Assembly: GCA_017530105.1 (NCBI GenBank) | Contig: JAFXMW010000101.1 | Location: forward strand, 1-32,722 | Reading direction: 5' to 3' | Length of the DNA: 32,722 nt | Source: Bacteroidales bacterium | GTDB lineage: Bacteria > Bacteroidota > Bacteroidia > Bacteroidales > P3 | Shown here: positions 3,279 through 30,871 of the stretch, piece after piece | How positions within the stretch are numbered: position 1 is the stretch's first letter | Layout: every line of letters starts with the position of its first letter | The notes under the pieces: model-generated | Told to the model about the DNA's origin: nothing | Database searches by the model: none | What the model saw: the letters and a program-made list of their open reading frames with translations, nothing else | Made by a program: the position numbers and the translations under genes

Positions 3279-6200
3279 TCAATTTACAATCAATGTCTTT
3301 ACATCTATGGGTTCTCCTTGGGATTCTATTCGGACAAAATACTGCCCAGCAGGAATGTTCGATAATTCAATTAAATGTGATGTTTGCGACATGTTTATAT
3401 TTGCCGAATATACGACCTGTCCCATAGAGTTGCTAACACTTAAGTAAGCAGAACCCACATCTCCTGACAAACGATACGAGACTAATGTTTGAATCGTAGC
3501 AGGATTGGGAGAAATAGAAGTTATCGCTCCACGACGAACCGATATCGTTATCGAATCATAACCAATAGCATTTTGAGTCTCTGAACGACCCACAAGATAA
3601 TACTGTTGCGTTATGGTTGGTGCTACTCTCAATTCATCTCCTATTCCGACTTTACTTCCTCTTCTGTTATACCATGCATATTCCACATCCGATTCACTGC
3701 TGGAAGCTGTTATTATCACGCTATCTCCTAACAAAACCGACCTGCAACCATGTGCAAAAACATCAATATACGCATTATTGTCATATACTGCTGTATAGTT
3801 TATTCTTCCACCAAATTGGTAACCATTATCATAATAATATACATTAATATCGAATGGCAACACACTTGCCTCTTCTTGTAATGGTATAGAGAATTGAACA
3901 TAAGCAGAAATAAAGTACATCCTATTGGTATCTACCTGAAAATTATCAAAGCTTACTATATGCGATGTTATTAAAAATAATCCATTGCCTAAATACACAT
4001 AGTCATGCGAGATATCCCTTGTTTGTTCCCACAGCCTTGTCAATTCCTCATCAAATTGCAAATACACACGTGCGACATCCGTCAAATGCTGCCCCGAAAT
4101 ATTCGGGTGAGATTGATATTGAATCCTAACAGGACAAGGGACTACTGAATGATAATTGTACTCAATGGCTGCCAGTACAGGGGGATATGCCTCCTGCAAT
4201 ACTGTAAAATCTCTTCTAGCAACATTGTTATTTTTGTAAACAAAATCATAAATAGGGTATGTGGAATAATCCTCTCCCCCAATCAAATATCCATCTTCTA
4301 CCCGCGCCAATAAAGCACAACTCCAACTATTTATATTAAAAGGCTGAACAAAAGCATAACCCATGTTGTAAAAATCGGGGGCTGTCCAGCTAATAGAAGC
4401 CACACACAAACCTCCTGCAGCAATACCGGGCAATACATACTCACCTATATACCCACCATGCACTAAATCATATTGATTCAACCACTGATATGGAGAACTA
4501 ACCCATGCCTTATTCCATGGCATGTAATTGGTAACACGCGACCAATTCAGACGGACTTTTTTTCCAGCTGGTGTGCTGATATTACTGCAATTGCGAACAA
4601 TTATTTGCACCTCATATTGTTCCCCTGCATTAATTGTATTAACATCCCGCCCATCTTTTATTATACGTATTTCAGGAGCGTTATACCCAACAACCATAAG
4701 ATTCTGTTCATTTCCAATATCTGTATTTTCGTCTTTAATATACAAATCCCCAACATTTCTCAAATCATATGCCATCTGCACTGCTGCTCCTGCATCCACG
4801 AGTCCATATCCCATATAACGGCACCATGTTCCATAAGGATGACTATTGTCTATATGATAATTATACCTATTTCCAATCTTTTTTGCCGTTTTCTCAATAA
4901 TGGCTTTAACCTGAGTATACTTCAAATTCGGATTTACCGAAAGCATCAAAGCTGCTACACCTGCCACATGGGGACATGCAGCAGATGTACCATGAAAACC
5001 ATTTCCCTCCGAAGGAAGCATGTAACCTCCGTTAAGATATGTTGTTGGGATATCTTCTCCTGGTGCTACAACACATAAGTTATCCCCATAATTACTACCC
5101 CAACTATGATTATACTGGCAACTATCTGGAGTTACTCTCTCTCCACATTTTGATATTGCCCCAACAGAAATCACATTGTATAAATTTGAAGGAAACGACA
5201 CTCCATCTTGGTTCCCATTCCCCGCCGAAAAAACGACCACACACCCCTTTCCATTTCTTCCACAATCCGTTGCATAAAAAATCTCAGACACTATTCCACT
5301 ATTAAAACCACCTGACCAAGAACAACTTAACACATCTGCTCCGAGATTACTCCAAGCCTGATTTATGCCATCTATAATCCATGAAGAAAAAGTCGTCATC
5401 ATAGCTGTTTGTCCACTATTATATCCGATACGTATCGGTATTATTTTTGATTTATTCGCTATCCCCTTCACACCAATAGAATTGTCCATGGCACCAATAA
5501 TACCGGCACACGATGTTCCATGATAATTACCAGTCATATTACTTCCATTAGTACCCCAACATTTGCATCCACTGCATCATATCCCAAAATAAGGTTTCCG
5601 ACTAAATCAGGATGCGTCAATTCAACACCCACGTCCAAAACAGCAACCTTGACATTATCCCCAGACGAAAGACTCCGTGCATCTGTAACATTAATATCAT
5701 AACCATTTACTTCATCAAATAGATTCCACTGTTGATCAAAATACGGATTATTACACTGCTTTATTAGCATCCCCCAGTCGGGCTGGGAATACTCCACATA
5801 CCCACTCTCAAAAAGCAGATTGGACAATTCAATTGTATTGCGATTGTCATTAAGATGAATAACTGACACATGCTTATCTTTTCCAATATAAGAAACTTTT
5901 CTATATGAAATATTTAGCGAATCTAAAATATCTATCGAACATCTATTTTTCCATTTTGCCAATATTCGATTGGTTGGCCACATCAACCCATCTTCATCAC
6001 CACAAAAAACATCTGTAACCACCACATCAATTTTATTTAAATCAATAATATCCGAAAGCCTCACTTTCGACAATTCCGTCACCCACAATGAATCTGTCAA
6101 CTGATACAAACTTTTGTCAATTGATTTAACTTGCCAAAAATGCCTCTGAGCAGTACAGTATCACTTATACCTTTCACCTGAAGAATATTCTTCGGTGAAA

Positions 6201-7286: not shown

Positions 7287-8396
7287 TTATTTCCTCTCTT
7301 TGAGAGAGTCAAGCCACTGAACCAAAGCATTCAAGACACTTTTGTCGGGAGCCTGCCCAAGGGTGGCGTACTCATCCACAGCTCCTGTCTGGCACACCTG
7401 TCCCAGATGGTTGATGTCCTTCAACTGCACGATGCTGCATTTCACCCTGTTTTTCTTACACACACGCTTTATTGCTGACAGGTTAGTCTCCGCCAGCACC
7501 TGGCAGTCCTTCTCGCCGCCTATTGCCAAGAGTGGACATCGCATTTTGGCGATATAGTCTGCAGGATTTAATGTCAGGAAGGTCGTCAGCCACGGTGTTG
7601 CCATCGATACTGCCCAGCCATAGCATTCCGTATTCGTCAGACCACACTGCTGCTTCTGCTCCTTGGTGAGCCCGGCGGAATGCTGTTTGAACAGCGGACG
7701 GAACGCCATGTTCAACATCTTGACAGTGTCCATCCCTTCCCCCAGAAACAGCGTGTCGTCTACTGCAAACAAATCTCTCATACACGCCAGCCGCCTTTCG
7801 ATAAGGCTGTCTGCAACACCCCGCAGGCGGAATAGTGCCTCGTTTTGTTGAAGCAGTATTGTCTTGCCGTCGGCACCTGCGCCGCCCAGCATCGCCACCC
7901 CGGCCACCTCGGCACGTCGCGCCGCCACAATGGCAGCCACCGTGGCACCCTCGCTGTGTCCGAAGAGGAAGATACGCTGAGGGTCGAAAAGCTCTGGTTT
8001 CTTCAATAGGTAATCCAACTGGAACTCCACATCCTTTGCAAAGTCGAGCGTTGTGGCATGGACCATATCGCCTGTCGATTCCCCAACTCCCCTGTCGTCG
8101 CACCGCATCACAGCGTAGCCACGTGCCGACAGGTATTCGGCAATCACCTTGAAGGGCTTGTGTCCCATCAGTTCCTCGTCGCGGTTTTGGGCACCCGACC
8201 CAGTGATGAGAATCACGGCAGGCACCTGGCCCTCCACTCCGTAGGGCAAGGTTAATGTTCCTGCAATCCGCATCGTGTCGTGTGTTGTCACATCCACGAT
8301 ATTGAACGAAAAGTCCTGTTCGGTGAAGGACTGCGCCTGCAGCCCTCCTACAGCCAGCAGCCATGCCAGCACCATGAACCAACGCTTTATCTCCAT
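7287..8396 (-). CDS. Secreted alpha/beta hydrolase (dienelactone hydrolase/peptidase-like)
   Basis: The product has 369 residues with a signal peptide (MEIKRWFMVLAWLLAVGGLQAQ), so it probably acts in the periplasm or is exported. After a beta-rich lead-in (DTMRIAGTLTLP) comes the alpha/beta hydrolase fold. It shows ILITGSGAQNRDE near the oxyanion hole, RCDDRGVGES, the nucleophile elbow GHSEGA (Ser at about 147), the acid in GGEKDCQV and the His in DINHLGQ. These are the catalytic Ser-Asp-His triad of esterase/peptidase-like members. The substrate cannot be told. No T9SS domain is seen at the C-terminus. The start overlaps the last 10 bases of gldD, so translation is probably coupled. It is the last gene of the 9480-to-7287 operon. 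Confidence 0.88.
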   Translation of the reverse strand: MEIKRWFMVLAWLLAVGGLQAQSFTEQDFSFNIVDVTTHDTMRIAGTLTLPYGVEGQVPAVILITGSGAQNRDEELMGHKPFKVIAEYLSARGYAVMRCDDRGVGESTGDMVHATTLDFAKDVEFQLDYLLKKPELFDPQRIFLFGHSEGATVAAIVAARRAEVAGVAMLGGAGADGKTILLQQNEALFRLRGVADSLIERRLACMRDLFAVDDTLFLGEGMDTVKMLNMAFRPLFKQHSAGLTKEQKQQCGLTNTECYGWAVSMATPWLTTFLTLNPADYIAKMRCPLLAIGGEKDCQVLAETNLSAIKRVCKKNRVKCSIVQLKDINHLGQVCQTGAVDEYATLGQAPDKSVLNALVQWLDSLKERK

Positions 8397-8977
8397 CGGA
8401 TAGACTCTATCAAGTGGTCGATATCATCCTGTATGTACTCCAGCACCGGAGCCAGCGAATCGTTGTTGGGTGTGCAGTCAATATAGAGCGCACCGCGGAG
8501 GAAATGCCGGTTGCTGTCCGTCACCCAGAACTGGTAAGTGCTGGCAACATTCTGCCCTTTGAGGTGGTAGGTGGTACCCGACAATTGATGCTCCCGGTCC
8601 ATAAACCTGTTCTCTTCTATCCCCGACGAGTAGGAGAAATGCCCCTCCACAAACTTATAAGAGGTGTCCACCTGCGCCCGCAGGTCTTTGACTCCGTTCA
8701 TGGCTTTGTATGTCATGAAGACATAGCCCTTGTACTTCGGGTAGGCGATGGTGAACCACTTGTCGCGCGGCAGATTTTTCTTCCATTGCACCTCGGCCAA
8801 ATTGCTCATTTCAAAGGTAAAGGGCAGAGCCGCCGTGTCGCACACCGAATAGGCATGAGGCGGCAAATCAATACGCAGGTAAGCCTGGGGCTTAGGGGTC
8901 TCGTTGCCATTGCTGCAGGCAGACACCGCTGCCACCCCGGCTAACAAAATCATGCAATACAAAACTCTTTTTGTCAT
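8387..8977 (-). CDS. gldD: Gliding motility/T9SS lipoprotein GldD
   Basis: The product is a 196-residue lipoprotein (signal peptide ending AVSAC) of the GldD family. Recognised features are PKPQAYLRIDLPPHAY soon after the Cys, W-x-IAYPKYKGYVFMTYKA in the middle, the STYQFWVTDSNRHFLRGALY block, and the ending NDSLAPVLEYIQDDIDHLIESI. GldD is one of the Gld proteins required in flavobacteria for gliding and for secretion through the type IX system. Its presence agrees with the T9SS cargo genes in this window. An in-frame TTG 24 bases upstream (9001) exists, but the ATG at 8977 gives a standard signal peptide. It lies 35 bases after the methyltransferase-like gene and overlaps the hydrolase gene. 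Confidence 0.92.
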   Translation of the reverse strand: MTKRVLYCMILLAGVAAVSACSNGNETPKPQAYLRIDLPPHAYSVCDTAALPFTFEMSNLAEVQWKKNLPRDKWFTIAYPKYKGYVFMTYKAMNGVKDLRAQVDTSYKFVEGHFSYSSGIEENRFMDREHQLSGTTYHLKGQNVASTYQFWVTDSNRHFLRGALYIDCTPNNDSLAPVLEYIQDDIDHLIESIRWR

Positions 8978-9012
8978 ATCTGAGCGAATGTGTTGTTTCA
9001 ATAAAAGTTGAT

Positions 9013-14078: not shown

Positions 14079-15764
14079 TCACTCCCCGCCTATTATTAGT
14101 TTGAGAAGCCGACAAGACCCTTCTGCCGCAGCAACCCTCACCACATACACCCCCGACGGGAGAACCGGAAGCCTCACATGTGTTGTCTGCCCTTCCGTGC
14201 GGCTATGGAACAACTTCCGCCCCATCACATCGTAGACCTCCACCCAAGCGGGCGTAACATCACAACTCACCTCCACCTTGGCACCCTTTGGCGCGGGATT
14301 GGGGAAAAGACTCACACCGCCTTCATCCACTCCGGCCTGAGCAATACCCACAGGCTGAGAAAGCAAAGCGCGGCTGAAATCGGGGATGCCGTAGCCGCAC
14401 AACTGGCTGGGGATTGAAGAGAAACTGCCCCAGGCACGCACACTGTCGCACAGCTGACGGGGTGTAAGGTTTGGAAACATCTGCCACAGACAGGCCATCA
14501 TCCCCGCCATCACGGGGCAGGCCAGCGAGGTGCCGTTGCCCGTGCTATAATAGCCGTCGGGGGTGGCCGTCACCACCTGCTCCCCCAGAGCCATCACATC
14601 GGGTTTGATGCAGCCGGTTGCCGTGGGGCCGTGGGCACTGAAGGTAGCCCGCTCGCCGGTGCTGTCCACAGCACCCACCGAGAGCACGGCGGGAGCATCG
14701 GCAGGCACATTCAAATGCTGGGGGAAAGCTCGGCCGTCGTTCCCCGCCGAATTCAGCACCAACATCCCGCGCGACACCGCCACCCCCGCAGCACGCGACA
14801 TGGGAGCGGTAAATCCGTCGAGGTCGTCCAAAGTATAGCTTCGGGTCGTGTCGTCGTAGTTGAAATAACCCAGCGAGGTTGTCACAATGTCAGCCCCAAG
14901 GCTGTCGAGCCACTCGGCGGCGGCCACCCAGTTATATTCCTCCAGCACATTCTCGTCCATCACATTCTCGGTGCGGCACAGCACATACGACGCCTTGGGA
15001 GCCGTACCCACATATCGGCCTGGCGCATCGGCAGCCATCAAGGCGAAACAATGGGTGCCGTGGGCGTGGACGGAAAAGACATCGTCTTCCTCACTCCACA
15101 CAAAATCGCGGGTTGCCAGCAGCCTGCCCTCGCGGCGCATGGGTTCGACAAGGGGGATGGTGTTCACTCCGGGAAAGCCACAGTCGCACACTCCGATAAT
15201 CATACCCTGCCCTTCAAAGCCGGCACGGTGCAGCGACTGTCCCCTTAACTGTGCAATCTGCCTATAGCCCCACCCGTAGTAGGCTTGGCCAAAAAGGGTG
15301 TCGACCTCGAAATCGGGCAGCCACCCACCTATATTGGCAAAATCGGTATCGGGCTGGAATACCGACCCACTGTCGCACAGCACCACCGACCTCACGAAAG
15401 GCAATGCCCCCACCCTGTCGGCAAAAGGCAGGATGGACGGGTCGGCCATATCGCCGGAATCGACAAAGGCCACAGCCCCGTTGAGCCAGCGCGAACGGTT
15501 CTGCACCCTGCAACCCTCCTGCCGCAAAGCCTCTAAATAGCCGGGGTTTACGGGAAGGTCGAGATTGTCCACGGCAATACCCTGCCGTGCCCTGCGTTCC
15601 AAAGCCCGCGGACCGAGAAACTCGTCAGGTCTTTCCAAACGGTAGGGCGAACCCTCTTTGTCGGTAAACTCAACCCAATACTTGTACACCGTCTGTGCCT
15701 GAGCGGCAGACAAAACAAGTAGGGAAATGCCCAGAAACAACAGTCGGACGACAGTCTTATTCAT
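14079..15764 (-). CDS. Secreted subtilisin-family (S8) protease with T9SS sorting domain
   Basis: The product has 561 residues, starting at ATG 15764 (a GTG lies one codon upstream). The signal peptide NKTVVRLLFLGISLLVLSAAQAQ is followed by a short prodomain-like region (about residues 25-180). The S8 catalytic domain comes next, with Asp in IIGVCDCGF (about 194), His in HAHGTHCFALMA (about 235), the oxyanion Asn in LNSAGNDG and Ser in GNGTSLACPVMAG (about 413). The last 80 residues form a T9SS type A sorting domain (LFPNPAPKGAKVEV ... LPSGVYVVRVAAAEGSCRLLKLII). It should be exported across the outer membrane and perhaps surface-attached. The gene begins 3 bases after the GH97 stop and so is co-translated with it. 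It is intact, unlike the S8 gene at 3279-6312. Confidence 0.93.
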   Translation of the reverse strand: MNKTVVRLLFLGISLLVLSAAQAQTVYKYWVEFTDKEGSPYRLERPDEFLGPRALERRARQGIAVDNLDLPVNPGYLEALRQEGCRVQNRSRWLNGAVAFVDSGDMADPSILPFADRVGALPFVRSVVLCDSGSVFQPDTDFANIGGWLPDFEVDTLFGQAYYGWGYRQIAQLRGQSLHRAGFEGQGMIIGVCDCGFPGVNTIPLVEPMRREGRLLATRDFVWSEEDDVFSVHAHGTHCFALMAADAPGRYVGTAPKASYVLCRTENVMDENVLEEYNWVAAAEWLDSLGADIVTTSLGYFNYDDTTRSYTLDDLDGFTAPMSRAAGVAVSRGMLVLNSAGNDGRAFPQHLNVPADAPAVLSVGAVDSTGERATFSAHGPTATGCIKPDVMALGEQVVTATPDGYYSTGNGTSLACPVMAGMMACLWQMFPNLTPRQLCDSVRAWGSFSSIPSQLCGYGIPDFSRALLSQPVGIAQAGVDEGGVSLFPNPAPKGAKVEVSCDVTPAWVEVYDVMGRKLFHSRTEGQTTHVRLPVLPSGVYVVRVAAAEGSCRLLKLIIGGE

Positions 15765-15767
15765 CAC

Positions 15768-20096: not shown

Positions 20097-20771
20097 ATGC
20101 AACAAAACTCATCCTCGGTCAAGGACTCCGCCATCATCTATTCCGGCGGTCTCGACTCCACCACGTTGCTCTATGAGGAGCAGCAGCGTATTGCTTTGGC
20201 CATTACTTTCGACTATGGCAGCAATCACGCCCAGCGCGAGACGGCCTGCGCACGCCATCATTGCAGCCTGCTGGGTATCGAGCATCTTGTCGTCCCGCTG
20301 TCGTTCTTCAGCGGCAATATCCTCTCGTCCCTCACCGCCGGGGCCGACGCCATCCCCGACGGCGACTATGACGACGGGAATATGCACTCCACGGTGGTGC
20401 CTTTCCGCAACGGCATCATGCTCGCCGTGGCCTGCGGCATAGCCGAAAGCCGGGGGCTCACCCACGTGTTTATCGCCAACCACGGGGGCGACCACGCCAT
20501 CTATCCCGACTGCCGTCCCGCTTTCATCGAGGCCATGAACGCCGCCATGCAGGCGGGCACTTACGAGGGTGTGACGCTCGAAGCCCCTTACACCGACCGC
20601 ACGAAGGCCGACATCGTAAGGCGCGGCCACTCGCTGGGCATCGACTACGCCGCCACTTATTCGTGCTACAAGGGTGGCGAGAAACACTGCGGCACCTGCG
20701 GCACCTGTCGCGAACGCCGCGAAGCCTTCGCTCAGGCCGGCCTGCCCGACCCCACCGTTTATCAATCATGA
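20097..20771 (+). CDS. queC: 7-cyano-7-deazaguanine synthase QueC
   Basis: The product has 224 residues. It converts 7-carboxy-7-deazaguanine to preQ0 with ATP and ammonia, the third step after GTP cyclohydrolase in queuosine synthesis. The PP-loop motif is IIYSGGLDSTT (residues 14-24), followed by FDYGSNHAQRE, VPFRNGIMLAVACGIAES and a zinc-binding end CYKGGEKHCGTCGTCRERREAF with four Cys. All are typical of QueC. It is the first gene of queC-queD-queE; queD follows after 21 bases. Confidence 0.96.
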   Translation: MQQNSSSVKDSAIIYSGGLDSTTLLYEEQQRIALAITFDYGSNHAQRETACARHHCSLLGIEHLVVPLSFFSGNILSSLTAGADAIPDGDYDDGNMHSTVVPFRNGIMLAVACGIAESRGLTHVFIANHGGDHAIYPDCRPAFIEAMNAAMQAGTYEGVTLEAPYTDRTKADIVRRGHSLGIDYAATYSCYKGGEKHCGTCGTCRERREAFAQAGLPDPTVYQS

Positions 20772-20792: not shown

Positions 20793-21131
20793 ATGTACTA
20801 TATCAAGAAAACCATCGAGATTTCGGGAGCGCACCGGCTTGAACTGGACTACCCCAGCAAATGCCGCTCCCTGCATGGTCACAACTGGACCATCACCGTC
20901 TACTGCAAGTCCGCCCAATTGGACCGCAACGGTATGATTATCGACTTCTCCGAAATCAAACGTCTTATTGCCGACCCCCTCGACCATCAGGTGCTCAACG
21001 ATGTGCTGCCTTTCAACCCCACCGCCGAGAACCTGGCACGCTGGTGCTGCGAACAGGTGCCTCACTGCTACCGTGTGGAGGTGCAGGAGAGCACGGGCAA
21101 CACCGCCATTTACGAAGCCGACCAGCCATGA
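20793..21131 (+). CDS. queD: 6-carboxy-5,6,7,8-tetrahydropterin synthase QueD
   Basis: The product has 112 residues, normal for QueD of the 6-pyruvoyl-tetrahydropterin synthase fold. It converts 7,8-dihydroneopterin triphosphate to 6-carboxytetrahydropterin, feeding QueE. Zinc ligands are His in ISGAHRLEL and the two His of SLHGHNWTI; the catalytic Cys is in SKCRSLHGHNW. DFSEIKRLIADPLDHQVLND carries the Asp-His relay and VEVQEST the pterin-binding Glu. The stop codon overlaps the queE start (ATGA), so translation is coupled. Confidence 0.96.
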   Translation: MYYIKKTIEISGAHRLELDYPSKCRSLHGHNWTITVYCKSAQLDRNGMIIDFSEIKRLIADPLDHQVLNDVLPFNPTAENLARWCCEQVPHCYRVEVQESTGNTAIYEADQP

Positions 21132-21709
21132 GGGTGAACGAGATATTCTATTCGCTCCAAGGCGAAGGACACCACACGGGCACTCCCGCCGTCTTTGTCC
21201 GCCTGTCGGGCTGCAACCTTCGCTGCCCCTTCTGCGACACGGAGTACCTCGCGGGCACGGAGATGAGCGAGGAGGAGATTGCCGCCCGAGTGGCTGAATG
21301 GCCGTCGCCGTGGGTGGTTGTAACGGGAGGCGAACCCTCACTGAGCCTCACCCCTTCGTTGGTGGATGCCCTGCACCACAGGGGCAAAAGCGTGGCCGTT
21401 GAGACCAACGGCACCCGCCCCTTGCCCCACAATGTCGACTGGGTGACCCTTTCGCCAAAAGAGCTCTACGTGGGGGAGGCGGGGCGTGTGGTGCTGGACC
21501 GCGCCGATGAAATCAAGGTGGTCTACGACGGCGAACACGAACCCGACACCTACAGCCACATCGAAGCACCCTGGCGATACCTGCAGCCTTGCGACACCGG
21601 GGACCCCGTGCGCAACCGCATTATCGTGCAGCAAACCATAGCGTATGTCAAAGCCCATCCCCTTTGGCGGCTCTCCCTCCAAACACACAAACTGCTCAAC
21701 ATACGCTGA
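21128..21709 (+). CDS. queE: 7-carboxy-7-deazaguanine synthase QueE
   Basis: The product has 193 residues. It is a radical-SAM enzyme that contracts 6-carboxytetrahydropterin to 7-carboxy-7-deazaguanine. The N-terminus VNEIFYSLQGEGHHTGTPAVFVRLSGCNLRCPFCDTEY carries the CxxxCxxC cluster motif. TGGEPSL is the SAM-binding GGE motif, and WVTLSPKE and PVRNRIIVQQTIAYVKAHPLWRLSLQTHKLLNIR match the family's C-terminal half. The start ATG 21128 overlaps the queD stop. It is the last gene of the operon and is followed by a long hairpin. Confidence 0.95.
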   Translation: MRVNEIFYSLQGEGHHTGTPAVFVRLSGCNLRCPFCDTEYLAGTEMSEEEIAARVAEWPSPWVVVTGGEPSLSLTPSLVDALHHRGKSVAVETNGTRPLPHNVDWVTLSPKELYVGEAGRVVLDRADEIKVVYDGEHEPDTYSHIEAPWRYLQPCDTGDPVRNRIIVQQTIAYVKAHPLWRLSLQTHKLLNIR

Positions 21710-21787: not shown

Positions 21788-24700
21788 TTACTTGAAGGCG
21801 TTTTCGGAAAGTCCCTTTCCGCCAATCTTGAGGTCGTCCATGTAGGAAGGAACGTCGCGACCGAGGTATTTGTCCACATAGAGTTTGGCAAGATACTGTC
21901 CCAGCATGAAGCCGTGTCCGCGCAGACCGGTGCAGAGACCCACTTCGGGGTCAATAATGTAGCGGGGTTCGGTGTAGCGTCCCGCCCACACGGCCAGGAA
22001 ACCCACCTCGCGCAGGTCGGGAATCCACTCGGCAAAGACCTCCGCGACAATCTCGAGGAACTCCTTGCTGTTGTATTTGATGTTCTGGCGCGACTCGTAG
22101 GCATCGGTGTCGGGGCTGGCACAGCCTATTATCTGGCCTGTATGTCCCCATTGCTGGCCGTAGACAGCTGAGAAACCCTTGTAGTGGCGACGGTCGATAA
22201 CCATGTCGAGCGGGCCTCCGTTGGGTCCCATCATGGGCAGACGGCGAGTGATGAAAGCCTGGTGTTTGACGGGATAGAGGCCGGTGTCGAGACCGAGTTG
22301 GTTGATGAATTTCTCGGCTCCCCAACCCATAGCGTTGACAAAATGCTGGCAGGTGTATTCGATATACTGCCCTTCGTGGTTGCGGACGAGAGCCACATAA
22401 TGCCCGCCTACACGCTGGACGTGGAGGAGTTCGCAATCCTCGAAATAGCTGCCGCCCTGCTGCACGCCTATCCAGCGGATATAGTCAATAACCCGTCCGG
22501 GAGTGGCCTGCCAGCAATCGCGGGTGATGAGGGCGTGGCTGTAGGTGGTCTTGGTGTCGTCCCACAGGGGCGAGATTTCCTTCTTGAAGTCCTTGCGGTC
22601 AATCATATAGGCGTCGCTCCAAGCGCGCGAGGCGTCGAGCGAACGGTAGGTGGCGTCGTCGTGGACAAGGTTGACGTAGTGTGTGGTGCGGTAATTGATG
22701 TTGTGGACCGCCTGCATCTGTTTGAAGATTTCGTGATTGTGGACAGCGATATCGGCGATGTCGGGATTGGAGAAAGCGGGACGGCCGCCCCCGATGCAGC
22801 GCCACGAGGCGCCACGGCTATAGTTAATCATGACGGGTTGCTTGCCTGCCTCGGCGAAATAGCGGAAGAGAGCGCTGCCCGCAATGCCGCCTCCGGCAAT
22901 CAGCACTTCGACCTGCTGGCGTTTCACCGCGTTGGTCTGGGGATAGACAAAGGTCTCGGTGGTGCCGGGGGTGTAAAGGTCAGAAAGGGTCACCTGGTTG
23001 GAGAGGGGGGCACGGGGAGTGGCGTCACCCACCAGCTCGATGCCATATGTGCGGAGAATCTGACGGGCACGGGGGATGCAGCGTTTGCCGCGGCAGGGAC
23101 CCATGCCGAGACGGGTGATGTGTTTCAGCTCGTCGACCGAGATGGTCTTGCGGTTGCCTATCACCCGCAGCACGCGGTCGAGCTTGATGTCCTCGCAATG
23201 GCACACATAGGTCTCGCTCTCCACGGGATGCAGCGGCTTGAACTCCAAGGGCTCGGGATAGCGGTCTTTGAGGATGAAACCCTTGACCTCGGTCAAAGCG
23301 CCGTCAACCCTGGCAACACGAACACGGGCCAGGTGGGTCTTGTTGGGTTTCTTGACAATCTTCTCAATCACACCTTCACCCACCTTCTGTCCGTTATTGT
23401 CCACCAAGAAGACTTCGGCACCCTCTTCCACCTCGTATTCGATGGGGAGGAAGCAGGTGCTCTTCTGCATGTCGTAGCCGAAGATGGCAAGGCCGGGGCA
23501 CGAAGTGACGCATTGCATACAGCCGATGCACTTGTCGTAGTCGACCGAAGGGGTCGAAGAGGTGGAAAGTTTGGTGATGGCCCCTTGTGGGCAGGAGAAA
23601 CTGCAGGGGTTGCAGGCAAAGCCATACAGGCAGTCCAACTGCACGAAAGGTTTGACAGCCATACGCTCGGCTGTGGGCAAAGAAGGTTTCTCGAGTATGC
23701 GGACGGGGTGCTGCTGCGAGTCGATATACTGGCGCGAGATGTCGAGGTAATCATCGTAATTGAAGCGGACACCGATGGCCTGAGCCACCTCGTAGGCCAC
23801 CTGCCTGCCGCGCAGCACAGCGCTGGTGCCTTCGCCGATGCGGATTGCGTCGCCCGCGCCATAGGTGTTGAAGCCGAACACCTCGCGGCCTTTCACCAGC
23901 AGCTGGTTGTCGGGAATCAAGCCGGTGCAGATATTGATGATGTCGATATCGTCGATGATTTGCTCAGTTCCGGGGATAGCCTTGAAATTCTCGCACTTGG
24001 CTATTACCGCACCCGTGATGCCCGTATAGTCGGCGTTGGGGATGGCCCGCACCAGGGTGTAGCCCGTCATGATGGGGATGCCCAGACGGCGCACCCTGTT
24101 GGCCTGCACCGGGAAACCGCCCTCGCGGGGCATGGCCTCGATGATGGCCTTGATGGTAGCCCCGGCCTGCATACCTTGATAGGACGTGAGGTAGCCGATA
24201 TTGCCCGCGCCCACGGTGAGCACCCGCTTGCCCAGCAGGGTGTGCTCCTGGTTCATCATCTTCTGGAAAACAGCGGCGGTGTACACGCCCGGCACATCGT
24301 CGTTCTCGAAGGTGGGCATGAAAGGCACAGCACCCGTTGCCACAACAAGGTGTTCGGCATCCACATACGACACCTCGCCCGAAACAATATTCTTCACGGC
24401 CACACGGCCCCCCTCGAGGAGGTCCCACACCGTGCTGTTGAGCAGGATACCCTCCTGGCTCTCGCCGGCAAGGGTCTTGGCTATGTCGAAACCGCGCATC
24501 CCGCCGAACTTCTTTTCCTTCTCGAAGAAGAAAAACTGGTGGGTCTGCATATTGAACTGGCCACCTATGCGGCTGTTGTTGTCTATCACGATATTGGTGA
24601 TGCCGAAAGCGTTCAGCTGCTCGCGGCAGGCAAGACCCGCAGGACCGGCACCGATAATGGCCACCTGGGTCTTGTAGATTTTCACCTCACGGGGTTGATG

Positions 24701-25015
24701 GTCGCGCATTTGGGGCAGCTCGTCCTCGTGAGCAGTCACCGAGCGCACCTCTTTCACCCCGTCGACGGGGGTGATGCAGATGCGGCGCACCTGCCCGTCC
24801 ACCAGCATCTCGCAGGCTCCGCATTTGCCTATGCCACAGTTCAGGCTGCGGTTGCGGCCGTCGATGCTGTGACTGTGTACAGGGAAACCAGCCTGATGCA
24901 AGGCGGCGGCGATGGTGTAGCCTTTGCGACCCTGCACTTTCTGTCCGTTATAAAGAAATTCCACTGTCCCGCCCTGCGGGATATCCAAGATAGGATGCTT
25001 TTCGATTTTGTACAT
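21788..25015 (-). CDS. Five-module iron-sulfur flavoprotein oxidoreductase (HcnA-HcnB-ferredoxin-BFD-HcnC-like fusion)
   Basis: One uninterrupted chain of 1,075 residues carries: (1) a 2Fe-2S ferredoxin domain, about 15-100, with Cys60, 65, 68 and 80; (2) an FAD/NAD-type pyridine nucleotide-disulfide oxidoreductase module, about 115-435, with IIGAGPAGLAC (FAD) and LTVGAGNIG (second nucleotide site); (3) a dicluster ferredoxin, about 460-510, with Cys462/468/471/475 and Cys496/499/502/506; (4) a BFD-like 2Fe-2S domain, about 600-660, with Cys605/607/641/646; (5) a DAO-type FAD domain, about 702-1050, with VLIAGGGIAGSALF. In relatives such as hydrogen cyanide synthase, opine oxidase, sarcosine oxidase and dye-linked (hydroxy)proline dehydrogenases these parts are separate or partly fused subunits. 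It likely oxidises an amine or imino acid and passes electrons onward. The substrate is unknown, no signal peptide is seen, and it stands alone between convergent and divergent neighbours. Confidence 0.88.
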   Translation of the reverse strand: MYKIEKHPILDIPQGGTVEFLYNGQKVQGRKGYTIAAALHQAGFPVHSHSIDGRNRSLNCGIGKCGACEMLVDGQVRRICITPVDGVKEVRSVTAHEDELPQMRDHQPREVKIYKTQVAIIGAGPAGLACREQLNAFGITNIVIDNNSRIGGQFNMQTHQFFFFEKEKKFGGMRGFDIAKTLAGESQEGILLNSTVWDLLEGGRVAVKNIVSGEVSYVDAEHLVVATGAVPFMPTFENDDVPGVYTAAVFQKMMNQEHTLLGKRVLTVGAGNIGYLTSYQGMQAGATIKAIIEAMPREGGFPVQANRVRRLGIPIMTGYTLVRAIPNADYTGITGAVIAKCENFKAIPGTEQIIDDIDIINICTGLIPDNQLLVKGREVFGFNTYGAGDAIRIGEGTSAVLRGRQVAYEVAQAIGVRFNYDDYLDISRQYIDSQQHPVRILEKPSLPTAERMAVKPFVQLDCLYGFACNPCSFSCPQGAITKLSTSSTPSVDYDKCIGCMQCVTSCPGLAIFGYDMQKSTCFLPIEYEVEEGAEVFLVDNNGQKVGEGVIEKIVKKPNKTHLARVRVARVDGALTEVKGFILKDRYPEPLEFKPLHPVESETYVCHCEDIKLDRVLRVIGNRKTISVDELKHITRLGMGPCRGKRCIPRARQILRTYGIELVGDATPRAPLSNQVTLSDLYTPGTTETFVYPQTNAVKRQQVEVLIAGGGIAGSALFRYFAEAGKQPVMINYSRGASWRCIGGGRPAFSNPDIADIAVHNHEIFKQMQAVHNINYRTTHYVNLVHDDATYRSLDASRAWSDAYMIDRKDFKKEISPLWDDTKTTYSHALITRDCWQATPGRVIDYIRWIGVQQGGSYFEDCELLHVQRVGGHYVALVRNHEGQYIEYTCQHFVNAMGWGAEKFINQLGLDTGLYPVKHQAFITRRLPMMGPNGGPLDMVIDRRHYKGFSAVYGQQWGHTGQIIGCASPDTDAYESRQNIKYNSKEFLEIVAEVFAEWIPDLREVGFLAVWAGRYTEPRYIIDPEVGLCTGLRGHGFMLGQYLAKLYVDKYLGRDVPSYMDDLKIGGKGLSENAFK

Positions 25016-25056: not shown

Positions 25057-25108
25057 CTCGTTTTTTTTCATTCACCGACAAAAAAAACGTTATTCGGGAA
25101 AAAATTAG

Positions 25109-25116
25109 TAAATTTG
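25109..25116 (+). promoter_or_regulatory. -7 element of the lipid kinase gene
   Basis: TAAATTTG ends 9 bases before the ATG at 25126, giving a leader of only about five bases. It is divergent from the flavoprotein promoter. Confidence 0.5.
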
Positions 25117-25125
25117 CAGGCCGAA

Positions 25126-26055
25126 ATGAAACATATCTTTATCATAAACCCATGCGCCGGACGCGAGGATTCCACCTCCTCCATCAGCCAACAAGTGGAG
25201 GCCTACGCCTCGGCACACCCCGCTTTCGACCATCAGATTTATGTCACCCAAAGCCCCGGCGACGCGACCCAATGGGTAAGCCAATGGTGCAGCCGGCACC
25301 CGGGCCGCGAGGCACGCTTCTACGCCTGCGGAGGCGACGGCACCCTGAACGAAGTGGTGAGCGGCCTGATAGGGCAGCCCGCCGTGCAGGTGACCTGCTA
25401 CGCCTCGGGCAGCGGGAACGACTATATCAAATACTACGGCACCCTTGAGGATTTCAACGACTTGGAGCGTCTTGTGAACGGACAACCCCACCCCGTGGAC
25501 GTAATGAAAGTGAACAACCGCTACAGCATCAACATCTGCAATTTCGGCTTCGACGCCATGGTGTGCAAAATAGGCAACGATGTAAGGCGCAAACCCATCA
25601 TCGGGGGCAAACACTCCTACACCACGGGCATCATCCGCAGCATCTTCACCTCGCGCAGCAACTACGTCCGCATGACCGTCGACGGCGAGCCCTTCTTCGA
25701 TGGCCACATGCTCCTCTGCACCCTTGGCAACGGCCGCTACAACGGCGGCAAATACATGTGCGCCCCGCTTTCCAAGAACGACGACGGGCTGCTCGAAGTC
25801 AACCTTTTCAAGCGTATGTCGCTTCTTAAATTCGCCTCGCTCATCGACGACTACAGCCACGGCACCCACATCAACCGCCCCGAAGTCAAACGGCTGATGC
25901 TCTACCGCCAGGCCACCACCGTCGAGATGGCCAGTCCCGACCCCTTCTGGCTGGTAATCGACGGCGAGATGCTCCACAGCAACCGCTACCGCGTAGTGAA
26001 CCTCCGCCACGCCGTCACCTTCGTCAGCCCGCACCCCTTATCACACCAAAATTAA
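25126..26055 (+). CDS. Diacylglycerol kinase-family lipid kinase (YegS/DgkB-like)
   Basis: The product has 309 residues from ATG 25126; an in-frame TTG at 25114 lies inside the -7 element and is rejected. The catalytic domain begins IFIINPCAG and carries ACGGDGTLNEVVSGL (nucleotide-binding GGDGT) and YASGSGNDY. FGFDAMVCKIGNDV and LLCTLGNGRYNGGKYMCAPLSKNDDGLLEVNLF are typical of the second lobe of this family. It probably phosphorylates diacylglycerol or a related lipid or sphingoid base at the membrane surface. No transmembrane segment is visible. It is monocistronic and divergent from the flavoprotein gene. The substrate is not decided by sequence. Confidence 0.92.
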   Translation: MKHIFIINPCAGREDSTSSISQQVEAYASAHPAFDHQIYVTQSPGDATQWVSQWCSRHPGREARFYACGGDGTLNEVVSGLIGQPAVQVTCYASGSGNDYIKYYGTLEDFNDLERLVNGQPHPVDVMKVNNRYSINICNFGFDAMVCKIGNDVRRKPIIGGKHSYTTGIIRSIFTSRSNYVRMTVDGEPFFDGHMLLCTLGNGRYNGGKYMCAPLSKNDDGLLEVNLFKRMSLLKFASLIDDYSHGTHINRPEVKRLMLYRQATTVEMASPDPFWLVIDGEMLHSNRYRVVNLRHAVTFVSPHPLSHQN

Positions 26056-27917: not shown

Positions 27918-28526
27918 TTACCAGCGCCAGCCTACGCGAATGGGGATGAAGATGGATTGCTGAACCATCACAATGCCCACTTCGGCAAAGAGGCTGTGGT
28001 AGTTGCGGTCCATCTGCTTGAGGGCGTGGTCGTAGAACCAGTTAAGGCCGCCGTAGACCTCGAGGTAGGGGCTGATGGTGTTGCCGTAGTTGTTGGGATT
28101 CATGAGGAAACTGCCACCCACACGGGCACCCACCATGGGAGCCCAGATGTCGCCCACGGGACGGAAATCCATGTCGATGAAAGCGACAGCCATGTGGCTG
28201 CTCATATCAAAACGTGCAGGATTCATGGGAGCGCAGAAAGCATAACCCAAACCACCGCCAAGGAAGAAATCCTGGCTGATGTTGATGCCGTTGATGACAT
28301 TGAAACCCATGGCCTCTTCGTATGAGTTGAGGTTGAAGCCTGTGCCTTTGATGTCTGGGTTGGTAGCACTGACAGCGGGTTTGCCATAGTTGCCGATATA
28401 GTGGAGGTATCCAGCCTCGACTTTAAACATATACTCCACTTTGGGACGGTCCTGTGTGTACTGGGCCGAGGCTGCGCCTGCGGCCAACATCATAACTATC
28501 AGTAAAACTGTTTTAATATTTTTCAT
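27918..28526 (-). CDS. Outer-membrane beta-barrel protein (202 residues)
   Basis: The signal peptide is MKNIKTVLLIVMMLAAGAASAQ. The mature part is rich in alternating aromatic and polar residues (VEYMFKVEAGYLHYIGNYG, FFLGGGLGYAF, VGARVGGSFLMNPNN, SPYLEVYGGLNWFYDHALK) and ends in VGWRW, an aromatic C-terminus typical of outer-membrane barrels. About eight strands can be imagined. The specific function is unknown. The start ATG 28526 overlaps the stop of the M1 peptidase gene (ATGA). An in-frame upstream extension was rejected because it crosses the -7 element at 28547-28554. Confidence 0.82.
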   Translation of the reverse strand: MKNIKTVLLIVMMLAAGAASAQYTQDRPKVEYMFKVEAGYLHYIGNYGKPAVSATNPDIKGTGFNLNSYEEAMGFNVINGINISQDFFLGGGLGYAFCAPMNPARFDMSSHMAVAFIDMDFRPVGDIWAPMVGARVGGSFLMNPNNYGNTISPYLEVYGGLNWFYDHALKQMDRNYHSLFAEVGIVMVQQSIFIPIRVGWRW

Positions 28527-30871
28527 TGTACTATAATTTGCGACTGCAAAGATACACAATTATTTTTGATTAGCACGATATAACTTCCTGCAGGGAGGTT
28601 ATGGCGGACGGTGCAACGGTCAGACAAGTCTCTTTTTTCCAGCACCTTATTCCCCTTTATATCAAAGACAGAGAGGTCAAATTTTTTGTCATATCCTCCC
28701 ATTTCGATTTGAAATTCGGAGCGGTTGGGATTGGGGAAAACCTGCAATTGGGGAGTTTGTGAGCCGTCAGAGAGTGTGGGGACAGCGGGAATGTCGAGGA
28801 GAGCGGTATCGATGACGGCCAAAGCATACTGGCCATAGGGGAAGAAGGGAGCGACAAAGTAGCCCGACGATGCAGAGCTGGAGGCAGTGCGTTTGTGCGA
28901 AACCACTTGCCAGGGGTGCGAGGCATCGGGACGGTATACCACGGCGATCGAGTCGAGCGTGCTGGCTTTCTCATAAAAGTTTTCGTCGAGGAACGCGGCA
29001 CCTTCGGCGTCGTATGAACCTTGGTTGTAAAAAAGCCTGAGCGTGGTGTTTTCATCCCAGTATTGAGCATTCACCTCCCAGTAACGGTTCGCGAGGCGGA
29101 CAATTCCCGGAAGGGTGTCGCCCGTGGGACGGGCAAAATGGTGGCCAACATACACCCAGTTGGAGTTTTCTTCAAGCGGTTTGCTTACTGACAGCTTGCA
29201 GTAGGCAACGGGGAGGTTGACAACCTCCTTTTTCTTTAATGAGACACTGCCGCCGGTGCAGGCATCGGAGATAGCGTTGTGATAGTCGACAATAGCGAAG
29301 GCGGCGGCAAAGGGCAATGTGAAGGTGCAGGTGGCCACGCTGTCGTCGAAAATCATCCATTGGTCGGACTGTTGCAAGTCGTGGGAGAAGAAGGTGACAG
29401 GTACACGGTTGCCGCGGGCATAGCGGGTAGCCCCCCGCAACAGTTGACGGAGTGTGAGGGTGGCATTGTTGCCTTGCACATCAAAGCGGTCGACGGAATA
29501 GTCGACAAAGCCGGGATGGGAGACATGGAAGTCGAAGAAACCGGTAAGGTCTATCCCACTGTAAAGGCTAAGGCTGTCGCGGAGGGTGGCGGCATCGATG
29601 TTGCCAAAAGCACAGGAAGAGAAGAGCCGGCGCATAGAAGCATAGAAAAGAGAATCACCCATGACTCCGCGGAGGGAATGCCACACCAAGGCACCTTTGT
29701 CGTAGGTGGTGGAGCCGTAGGTGTTACGCTCGGGCATGTCGGCGAGCGCAAGGTAACCGCCGTCCTTCACATGAGCGGTACGCAACACTGTGCGCAGGTT
29801 AGACAGGTAATAGGATTCAGCCCAGTCGCTACCGTAGATGGCCTCTGCGGCCACCTCCTCGCAGAAAGAGGCACCACCCTCGTTAATCCACATGTCACCC
29901 GCAGTGGCGCAGGTGATGAGGTTGCCGAACCAGGCATGAGCCAGCTCGTGGCAGGTGGTCATGTTGCAAGGCGAATTGTCCAACATAGACATGCAATCGT
30001 AGGCCAGGGCAATGTTCTGGGCGTGCTCCATCGAACCCCTTGGGGTGGAGATATAGCCTATACGCTCCCAACGGTAAGGTCCGAAGCAGCGTTCGAACAT
30101 GGGGACAACCTGGTTGATCATATCGAAGTGAGCTACGACATCAATACTATCTTGGTCGATGAAACCCAGGAGGGCGGGATAGGACTGATGCTCGCCAGCA
30201 AAAGAGGTTTCAATAACATGCCATTGAGCCGAGGAGACCGAAGCGAGGTAGGTGGGAATGGGCTGGTTGAGCTGCCACTCCTCGGTGAGGCTGCCGTCGC
30301 TGTTGCGGAAGCTGGACTGCAACAAGCCGCTGCACATCGAGCGCCAACCGGGCTGGGAAGTGACGACAAAGGTGTAAGTGGCCTTGTCGTAAAAGTTGTC
30401 GCGGCAAGGAAAGAGACAACGCCCGAAACTGTGGGGGTACTCCTTGAACGCCACACCGAGATTATAGTATATGGAATAATCCATGTGCATGCCACCGAAG
30501 CCGTAACTCTCCACATACCCATTGGTGACATAGGGAACTGAGAGGACATGGGTGTCGCCTACTTGGCCGCCTACATAGACCTGCAGCAACCTATCGTCGG
30601 GGTTGTAGCTGAATCCTCGAGTGACCGTTCCATCAATACTGACGGGGTGAACACTGTCGGCAATGAGGTCGAAGGCTACCTGGCTGCAATTCTGGGTTTT
30701 CACAAAGGTGATTTCAGCCACACCACGCAATTGCCTTACCCTTGTGTGTCCCAAATCAAGGGTCAGTCTATAGTGCAAAACATCCACAGAATCATGTGCT
30801 GCATCCTGAGCGTACACCTCTGGAGTAAGGAGCGGAAGCATCAGCAAGAAAAAAAATACGCTACGTTTCAT
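28523..30871 (-). CDS. Secreted M1-family metallopeptidase with T9SS sorting domain
   Basis: The product has 782 residues. The signal peptide MKRSVFFFLLMLPLLTPEVYA is followed by an N-terminal beta-saddle domain. The catalytic domain has the zinc motif CHELAHAWFGN (His308-His312) with Glu331 in WINEGGASFCEE. The exopeptidase motif GxMEN is present as GSMEH (279-283), with His instead of Asn. A C-terminal region ends in a T9SS type A sorting domain (LQVFPNPNRSEFQIEM ... LPAGSYIVLIKNNCV...QSQIIVQ). It probably removes N-terminal residues from peptides outside the cell. The last codons contain a promoter for the downstream outer-membrane protein gene. The upstream -7 element is at 30903-30910. 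Confidence 0.93.
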   Translation of the reverse strand: MKRSVFFFLLMLPLLTPEVYAQDAAHDSVDVLHYRLTLDLGHTRVRQLRGVAEITFVKTQNCSQVAFDLIADSVHPVSIDGTVTRGFSYNPDDRLLQVYVGGQVGDTHVLSVPYVTNGYVESYGFGGMHMDYSIYYNLGVAFKEYPHSFGRCLFPCRDNFYDKATYTFVVTSQPGWRSMCSGLLQSSFRNSDGSLTEEWQLNQPIPTYLASVSSAQWHVIETSFAGEHQSYPALLGFIDQDSIDVVAHFDMINQVVPMFERCFGPYRWERIGYISTPRGSMEHAQNIALAYDCMSMLDNSPCNMTTCHELAHAWFGNLITCATAGDMWINEGGASFCEEVAAEAIYGSDWAESYYLSNLRTVLRTAHVKDGGYLALADMPERNTYGSTTYDKGALVWHSLRGVMGDSLFYASMRRLFSSCAFGNIDAATLRDSLSLYSGIDLTGFFDFHVSHPGFVDYSVDRFDVQGNNATLTLRQLLRGATRYARGNRVPVTFFSHDLQQSDQWMIFDDSVATCTFTLPFAAAFAIVDYHNAISDACTGGSVSLKKKEVVNLPVAYCKLSVSKPLEENSNWVYVGHHFARPTGDTLPGIVRLANRYWEVNAQYWDENTTLRLFYNQGSYDAEGAAFLDENFYEKASTLDSIAVVYRPDASHPWQVVSHKRTASSSASSGYFVAPFFPYGQYALAVIDTALLDIPAVPTLSDGSQTPQLQVFPNPNRSEFQIEMGGYDKKFDLSVFDIKGNKVLEKRDLSDRCTVRHNLPAGSYIVLIKNNCVSLQSQIIVQ
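28547..28554 (-). promoter_or_regulatory. -7 element for the outer-membrane protein inside the M1 coding sequence
   Basis: On the minus strand TATCTTTG occurs within the last ten codons of the M1 peptidase gene, 20 bases before the outer-membrane protein ATG at 28526. The downstream gene can thus be transcribed on its own. Confidence 0.5.

What the first reader, a model, noticed from the sequence alone, without database searches (positions are those of the whole stretch)
21788..25015. A whole multi-subunit amine/imino-acid dehydrogenase fused into one 1,075-residue chain
One open frame joins a 2Fe-2S ferredoxin, an FAD/NAD(P)-type oxidoreductase with two nucleotide motifs, an 8-Cys dicluster ferredoxin, a BFD-like 2Fe-2S domain and a DAO-type FAD domain. 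All cluster ligands and dinucleotide motifs are intact (C60/65/68/80; C462/468/471/475; C496/499/502/506; C605/607/641/646; GAGPAG, GAGNIG, GGGIAG). In HcnABC, opine oxidase, sarcosine oxidase and dye-linked (hydroxy)proline dehydrogenases these parts are two to five proteins. The fusion contains at least four iron-sulfur clusters and two flavins, enough for an internal electron wire from the DAO active site to a soluble or NAD acceptor. No transporter or pathway gene is beside it, so the substrate is open. Candidates by family are proline, hydroxyproline, glycine and opine-like imino acids.
Basis: partly seen in the sequence, partly recalled or inferred. Interest (0 to 1): 0.8.

Follow-up and report, generated by a model that had tools for sequence, protein, structure and literature searches.

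The report
Single-chain amino-acid dehydrogenase in Bacteroidales
A gut bacterium carries, as one long protein, a set of redox domains that other microbes build as a complex of several proteins; it probably strips electrons from proline or a similar amino acid and looks like an uncharacterised enzyme shared by many Bacteroidales.

Summary
The 1,075-aa frame at 21788-25015(-) is real and holds all five modules. It is not peculiar to this window: the same chain occurs in 113 of 295 genomes of the order, own included, in 109 as one unbroken frame, and in none of 394 others in a phylum sample. All 16 cluster cysteines are invariant in 39 of 39 homologues. The nearest solved relative by profile and Foldseek is the two-subunit L-proline dehydrogenase of Pyrococcus horikoshii (1y56), though VIA-align puts glycine oxidase first for the DAO part. 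The Arg of the Arg-X-Trp FMN motif is Ala in 39 of 39 homologues, while a split paralogue keeps it. No conserved operon was found. Proline is favoured by co-occurrence with P5C dehydrogenase (97/113 versus 81/182) and by proline-dehydrogenase genes beside it in 6 of 75 genomes. Both are indirect: HutH also associates (odds 4.1) and the own genome has ornithine aminotransferase. Verdict: a single-chain variant of the dye-linked proline/hydroxyproline/opine dehydrogenase kind; substrate and acceptor untested.

The parts
21788..25015 (-). The fused dehydrogenase gene, 1,075 aa, ATG start
   Evidence: one unbroken frame in 109 of 113 enzyme-bearing genomes of the order
24737..24967 (-). Fer2_4 [2Fe-2S] domain, residues 17-93, ligands C60-X4-C65-X2-C68-X11-C80
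   Evidence: 2.3e-12; ligands invariant in the sets aligned
23891..24667 (-). Pyr_redox_2 FAD/NAD(P) domain, residues 117-375, GAGPAG and GAGNIG motifs
   Evidence: 6.1e-22; profile positions 14-268, which span this and the Fer2 domain, align to 1y56_A 12-257
23483..23632 (-). Dicluster ferredoxin-like segment, residues 462-511, C-X5-C-X2-C-X3-CP and C-X2-C-X2-C-X3-CP
   Evidence: Fer4 8.4e-7, Fer4_10 6.9e-6; 8 Cys invariant in the sets aligned
23051..23209 (-). BFD-like [2Fe-2S] domain, residues 603-655, C605-X-C607-X33-C641-X4-C646
   Evidence: 1.8e-8; weak second alignment to the C-terminal part of 1y56_A (i-Evalue 0.072)
21872..22906 (-). DAO-type FAD catalytic domain, residues 704-1048, GGGIAG motif, invariant R745
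21986..21994 (-). A1008-V-W1010, the place of the Arg-X-Trp FMN motif; Arg replaced by Ala
   Evidence: alignment; Ala in 19/19, 44/44 and 39/39
25114..26055 (+). Divergent neighbour, YegS/diacylglycerol-kinase type; not part of the system
20861..21709 (+). Convergent neighbour, radical SAM protein (next to QueC at 20097-20771); not part of the system

Best explanation
A single-chain, probably cytosolic relative of the multi-subunit dye-linked L-proline / D-hydroxyproline / opine dehydrogenases. Shown: module content, conserved ligands, kinship to both subunits of the P. horikoshii L-proline dehydrogenase, wide conservation in Bacteroidales as one chain, loss of the FMN-motif Arg. Inferred: the DAO FAD takes a hydride from a secondary amino acid, most likely L-proline, giving 1-pyrroline-5-carboxylate (P5C), which P5C dehydrogenase turns to glutamate. 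Electrons then leave through the built-in chain of BFD [2Fe-2S], two [4Fe-4S], the second FAD and the Fer2 [2Fe-2S] to a soluble carrier (ferredoxin, a quinone-linked protein or NAD(P)); order and exit are not shown. With no FMN-motif Arg, the relay that FMN gives in the known complexes is probably absent or altered here.
For: Modules. A profile search of the PDB puts 1y56_B (1.5e-16) and 1y56_A (9.7e-15), two subunits of one L-proline dehydrogenase, first and second; Foldseek ranks 1y56_A first and 1y56_B fourth. Co-occurrence over 295 order genomes: P5C dehydrogenase in 97 of 113 with the enzyme, 81 of 182 without, odds 7.6, p 4e-13; it holds in HutH+ (74/80 versus 45/68) and HutH- strata (23/33 versus 36/114), and among genomes without Pro_dh the enzyme is in 26 of 40 with P5C dehydrogenase and 12 of 78 without. 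Pro_dh genes of two types lie beside the enzyme in G139, G239, G166, G136, G321 and G267, 4 families, 6 of the 75 genomes that have both. The own genome has P5C dehydrogenase and no Pro_dh match. R745 is invariant in the three sets; R739 in 19/19 and 39/39 but 43/44 of A3; R745 as carboxylate contact is recalled from sarcosine oxidase. Pairwise distances of the two halves correlate (Pearson 0.84, 39 homologues), as one old fusion would give.
Confidence: 0.45

Rival explanations
1. Same machine, another substrate: an amine or amino acid such as glycine, sarcosine/dimethylglycine, L-hydroxyproline or an opine-like imino acid is oxidised; the proline signal only reflects amino-acid-fermenting lineages.
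For: VIA-align puts glycine oxidase ahead of 1y56_B for the DAO part, and dimethylglycine dehydrogenase and sarcosine oxidase near it; HutH and the looser HAL family also associate with the enzyme; no conserved pathway neighbour was found; unlike catalytic subunits of the heteromeric family can serve one substrate by subunit exchange (PMC4575208, passages and section 22).
Against: The P5C dehydrogenase association remains within HutH strata; two types of Pro_dh lie beside the gene in 4 families; the two subunits of a proline dehydrogenase are the best joint sequence match; proline racemase PF05544 is not enriched.
Confidence: 0.35
2. It runs the other way: NAD(P)H or ferredoxin feeds the chain and the DAO site reduces an imino acid (for example P5C), an electron sink in fermentation.
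For: The chain carries an NAD(P)-type motif, GAGNIG, and four predicted clusters; the proline/P5C couple is recalled to lie well above NAD+/NADH, so proline-to-NAD flow would be uphill.
Against: The members of the family described in PMC4575208 are oxidising, dye-linked enzymes; no test here bears on direction.
Confidence: 0.1
3. A glycerol-3-phosphate dehydrogenase of GlpA type with added modules.
Against: 61.5 bits against a cut-off of 552.8; the profile finds the amino-acid enzymes 1y56_B and dimethylglycine dehydrogenase, and no glycerol-3-phosphate dehydrogenase, at 1e-6.
Confidence: 0.05

Closest known systems
L-proline dehydrogenase complex of Pyrococcus horikoshii (PH1363/PH1364, PDB 1y56)
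   Same: Fer2-like N-terminus + FAD/NAD domain in the alpha subunit, a weakly matched BFD-like segment behind it, and a DAO beta subunit, in the order of this chain
   Different: Two proteins; the alignments show no counterpart of the dicluster segment; the alpha N-terminus lacks the [2Fe-2S] cysteines in that alignment; R-T-W where this chain has A-V-W; 19-20% identity
Four-subunit L-proline dehydrogenase of Thermococcus (pdhA, pdhF, pdhX, pdhB)
   Same: Several redox subunits plus a beta subunit, genes clustered in T. litoralis (PMC4364671, passages read)
   Different: Four proteins; sequences not compared here, so the match of its modules to this chain is recalled, not tested
Flavin-containing opine dehydrogenase / D-hydroxyproline dehydrogenase / HCN synthase (alpha4 beta4 gamma4)
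   Same: Two ADP-binding motifs and [2Fe-2S] motifs of two kinds (PMC4575208)
   Different: Three proteins; the authors assign 2 FAD, 1 FMN and 1 [2Fe-2S] per alpha-beta-gamma unit of the P. putida enzyme and name no 4Fe-4S cluster in the passages seen; R-X-W present there, A-X-W here
Split paralogue in G177 and G196 (L058, L059)
   Same: Fer2 - Pyr_redox - C-X5-C dicluster - BFD order, 30% identity to residues 2-680
   Different: DAO is a separate gene; in L058 it keeps R-I-W. The core carries a NuoG/FlpD-like extension and in L058 a NuoF-type partner gene

Membership tests
Heteromeric dye-linked L-ProDH / D-HypDH / OpnDH family (features from PMC4575208) | Two ADP-binding motifs GxGxxG, one per flavoprotein part | tested here: met
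   GAGPAG 122-127 and GGGIAG 708-713, Gly invariant 19/19 and 44/44
Heteromeric dye-linked L-ProDH / D-HypDH / OpnDH family (features from PMC4575208) | [2Fe-2S] motif C-X4-C-X2-C-X11/12-C | tested here: met
   C60-X4-C65-X2-C68-X11-C80
Heteromeric dye-linked L-ProDH / D-HypDH / OpnDH family (features from PMC4575208) | Second [2Fe-2S] motif C-X-C-X15-20-C-X4-C | tested here: inconclusive
   C605-X-C607-X33-C641-X4-C646: the pairs fit, the spacer is longer than printed; the Fer2_BFD model is matched above its cut-off
Heteromeric dye-linked L-ProDH / D-HypDH / OpnDH family (features from PMC4575208) | Arg-X-Trp FMN motif in the DAO part | tested here: not met
   A1008-V-W1010 at the aligned place; Ala in 19/19, 44/44 and 39/39. 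The chain has one R-X-W elsewhere in the DAO part, R797-A-W799, whose Arg is not conserved across A1
Heteromeric dye-linked L-ProDH / D-HypDH / OpnDH family (features from PMC4575208) | Separate subunits | tested here: not met
   One frame, unbroken in 109 of 113 order genomes
Heteromeric dye-linked L-ProDH / D-HypDH / OpnDH family (features from PMC4575208) | Dye-linked oxidation of proline, hydroxyproline or opine; FAD and FMN content | not testable with these tools
   needs the purified protein
Sarcosine oxidase alpha family (TIGR01372) | Score above the NCBIfam cut-off | tested here: not met
   66.6 bits against 1164
Anaerobic glycerol-3-phosphate dehydrogenase GlpA (TIGR03377) | Score above the NCBIfam cut-off | tested here: not met
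   61.5 bits against 552.8
DAO superfamily (PF01266) | Pfam gathering score and nearly full profile length | tested here: met
   102.9 bits against 27.9, profile 2-352 of 353

The most novel reading that the evidence does not exclude
A self-contained one-gene electron wire: a soluble proline (imino acid) dehydrogenase in which the FMN relay of the archaeal and proteobacterial complexes has been lost, its task moved to built-in iron-sulfur clusters, letting anaerobic gut Bacteroidales move proline electrons straight to ferredoxin or an NAD pool, or run the reaction backwards as an electron sink, without any partner gene.
Probability: 0.2. Interest if true: 0.75.

Novelty: new variant of a known kind. 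Interest (0 to 1): 0.5.

Why it matters
About two in five of the sampled genomes of the order carry this chain (113 of 295), yet the one annotated full-length hit found, in Parabacteroides distasonis, is called only 'FAD-dependent oxidoreductase'. If it is a proline dehydrogenase it would give gut Bacteroidales in which no Pro_dh was found, such as this genome, a way to use proline. One gene instead of several would also make it a convenient system for asking how versions with and without FMN pass electrons.

Tried and rejected
Operon clues: mechanical ORFs around the enzyme in the window and 21 other loci, then in the window and 99 other loci, some of them the same genomes, showed no conserved partner; the widest neighbour cluster spans 11 loci. 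Same-strand neighbours within 150 bp were diverse. Ten of them, scanned, gave AA kinase, an RlmL-type methyltransferase, MatE (twice), M64 peptidase, a CHU_C protein, an S1/CvfB protein, TonB_C/MORN, DUF5686 and one without a family. In one search three loci (L106, L119, L122) gave no target and were dropped. In the later set of 20 loci, picked partly for Pro_dh, a run of genes of about 172-196, 318-322 and 329-343 aa beside the enzyme looked at first like a hydroxyproline cluster. Those scanned proved to be YceD, FA_synthesis and ACP synthase III on one side and starch synthase and DUF4270 on the other: housekeeping synteny. Racemase route: PF05544 not enriched.

Pro_dh adjacency: for 70 of the 75 genomes with both genes I compared the listed coordinates by eye, not by script; the five whose Pro_dh rows were not listed (G060, G136, G234, G239, G321) were fetched and searched with two Pro_dh proteins. 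Further Pro_dh copies in unlisted rows could have been missed.

Structure: one AlphaFold2 job on 44 sequences gave pLDDT 64.7 and pTM 0.49, too weak for cofactor distances. The second job was not used: the search for related loci proteins at hand were all close relatives. Foldseek also listed NfnABC/StnABC chains at rmsd 26-42; not taken as evidence. A fold that VIA-align does not list is not excluded.

Plasmid search of the DAO part alone found only Parabacteroides at 1e-5. The first 680 residues matched 53 records, 52 of them under 60% identity, mostly of proteobacterial genera and several as two adjacent annotated genes; not analysed further. The enzyme count of 113 leaves out G177 and G196, which match only the first 680 residues at 32-33%.

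Papers: searches found none; some searches returned listings. Opened were PMC4575208 (passages, section 22), PMC8704557 (passages) and PMC4364671 (passages). The Sf. tokodaii lactate dehydrogenase of PMC8704557 does not bear on this enzyme. 'Uncharacterised' rests on these searches of an open-access library alone.
Full report
What is there. The minus-strand frame 21788-25015 encodes 1,075 residues from an ATG with an in-frame stop 12 nt upstream. Pfam finds Fer2_4, Pyr_redox_2, 4Fe-4S and Fer2_BFD domains and a nearly full-length DAO domain in that order, all above cut-off. The first 4Fe-4S motif has an unusual C-X5-C start; the split paralogue P0002 shares it.

Is it one gene? Yes. 35 of 61 relatives and 115 of 295 genomes of the order match, own genome included in both. 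Two of the 115 (G177, G196) match only the first 680 residues at 32-33% and are set apart, leaving 113. In 109 of these it is one frame without internal stops; four give pieces. Identity across the order is mostly 60-67%, with extremes of 54% and 87% among full-length hits other than the own. A phylum sample of 395 genomes had no match at 1e-60 but the own one; of the 20 other rows shown 15 are of other orders of the class, and 374 rows were not shown. The named scan kept 80 loci, labelled Bacteroidales, Bacteroidia, Bacteroidetes or families and genera within, many from ruminants. Distances of the N-terminal and DAO halves correlate (Pearson 0.84, 741 pairs of 39 homologues), as one old fusion would give.

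Surroundings. In the window the gene stands between a divergent YegS-type lipid kinase and a convergent radical SAM gene beside QueC. Over the window and 99 other loci no neighbour recurs in more than 11. Among 20 loci fetched later several share a housekeeping neighbourhood. The enzyme appears to be its own unit.

What differs. In the alignment to 1y56_B the Arg of R-T-W lies over A1008. PMC4575208 (section 22) names Arg-X-Trp as the putative FMN motif of D-HypDH, L-ProDH and opine dehydrogenases. Ala is found in 19/19, 44/44 and 39/39 of three overlapping sets, whereas the free DAO of the paralogue operon in L058 has R-I-W near its C-terminal end, in the like context by eye. One other R-X-W, R797-A-W799, exists in the chain but its Arg varies in A1. 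The paralogue has the dicluster too, so the dicluster alone does not explain the loss of Arg.

Substrate. P5C dehydrogenase TIGR01236 is in 97 of 113 genomes with the enzyme and 81 of 182 without (odds 7.6, p 4e-13). Controls: HutH over threshold, 80/113 versus 68/182 (odds 4.1, p 3e-8); loose HAL family, 108/113 versus 117/182 (odds 12, p 5e-11); proline racemase, 6/113 versus 17/182. The P5C dehydrogenase link stays within HutH+ (odds 6.3) and HutH- (5.0) genomes, but no test corrects for kinship, and the loose control exceeds the signal by odds. Pro_dh PF01619 by itself is only weakly linked (75/113 versus 102/182, p 0.09). Among the 75 genomes with both, Pro_dh lies beside the enzyme in six: three read by eye from listed coordinates (G139, G166, G267) and three found on fetching five whose rows were not listed (G136, G239, G321 yes; G060, G234 no). 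They fall in 4 families and involve a short Pro_dh (best NCBIfam match the Thermus type, below its cut-off) and a long one. A rough chance figure, 75 x 2/3500 with 3,500 genes assumed, is 0.04 genomes; shared synteny reduces the six to perhaps two or three events. The own genome has P5C dehydrogenase and no Pro_dh match but also ornithine aminotransferase, so the enzyme is not its only possible P5C source; the genome is 83% complete.

Mechanism. Shown: cofactor sites by sequence. Inferred: substrate oxidation at the DAO FAD, electron passage over the BFD and ferredoxin-like clusters to the second FAD and Fer2 cluster, and release to a soluble carrier. Direction, order and acceptor are open, and the predicted model is too poor to measure distances.

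Verdict. It is a new single-chain variant of a known kind of enzyme complex, found here only in one bacterial order, uncharacterised as far as the searches named in Tried and rejected go; proline is the best-supported but unproven substrate.

Noticed in passing
L058:3873-11337 (G177) and L059:4809-9850 (G196): A paralogue operon, read in full in G177: a NuoE/NuoF-type 798-aa protein (best PDB match 9mqx_B, 3.8e-225; also HydB, NfnB and the B chain of StnABC), a 1,290-aa protein with NuoG-like, Fer4 and FlpD parts fused to the Fer2-Pyr_redox-dicluster-BFD core, and a separate SoxB/ThiO-like DAO. It looks like an amine dehydrogenase wired to an electron-bifurcating-type NADH module. In G196 only the last two genes were read.
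   Followed up: partly
L179:1455-4695 (G021:C16): In one same-genus genome the enzyme breaks into two frames near residues 590-599, between the dicluster half and the BFD-DAO half; natural fission or a frameshift.
   Followed up: partly
NZ_OY725834.1 (L057:12001-15237): The Parabacteroides distasonis homologue (64.5% identity) lies on a 219-kb circular record filed as a plasmid, next to an integrase-like gene and a run of fimbrillin genes.
   Followed up: no
window 3279-5537, 14079-15767, 28523-30871: Two subtilases and an M1 peptidase with type IX secretion tails, with GldD at 8387-9001: a gliding/T9SS-type, protein-degrading Bacteroidales by the look of it.
   Followed up: no
window 25105-26034 (-) versus 25114-26055 (+): Two long overlapping frames on opposite strands; only the + strand one matches a family (YegS/DAGK; none for the - strand one), so the - strand frame is probably a shadow.
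   Followed up: yes
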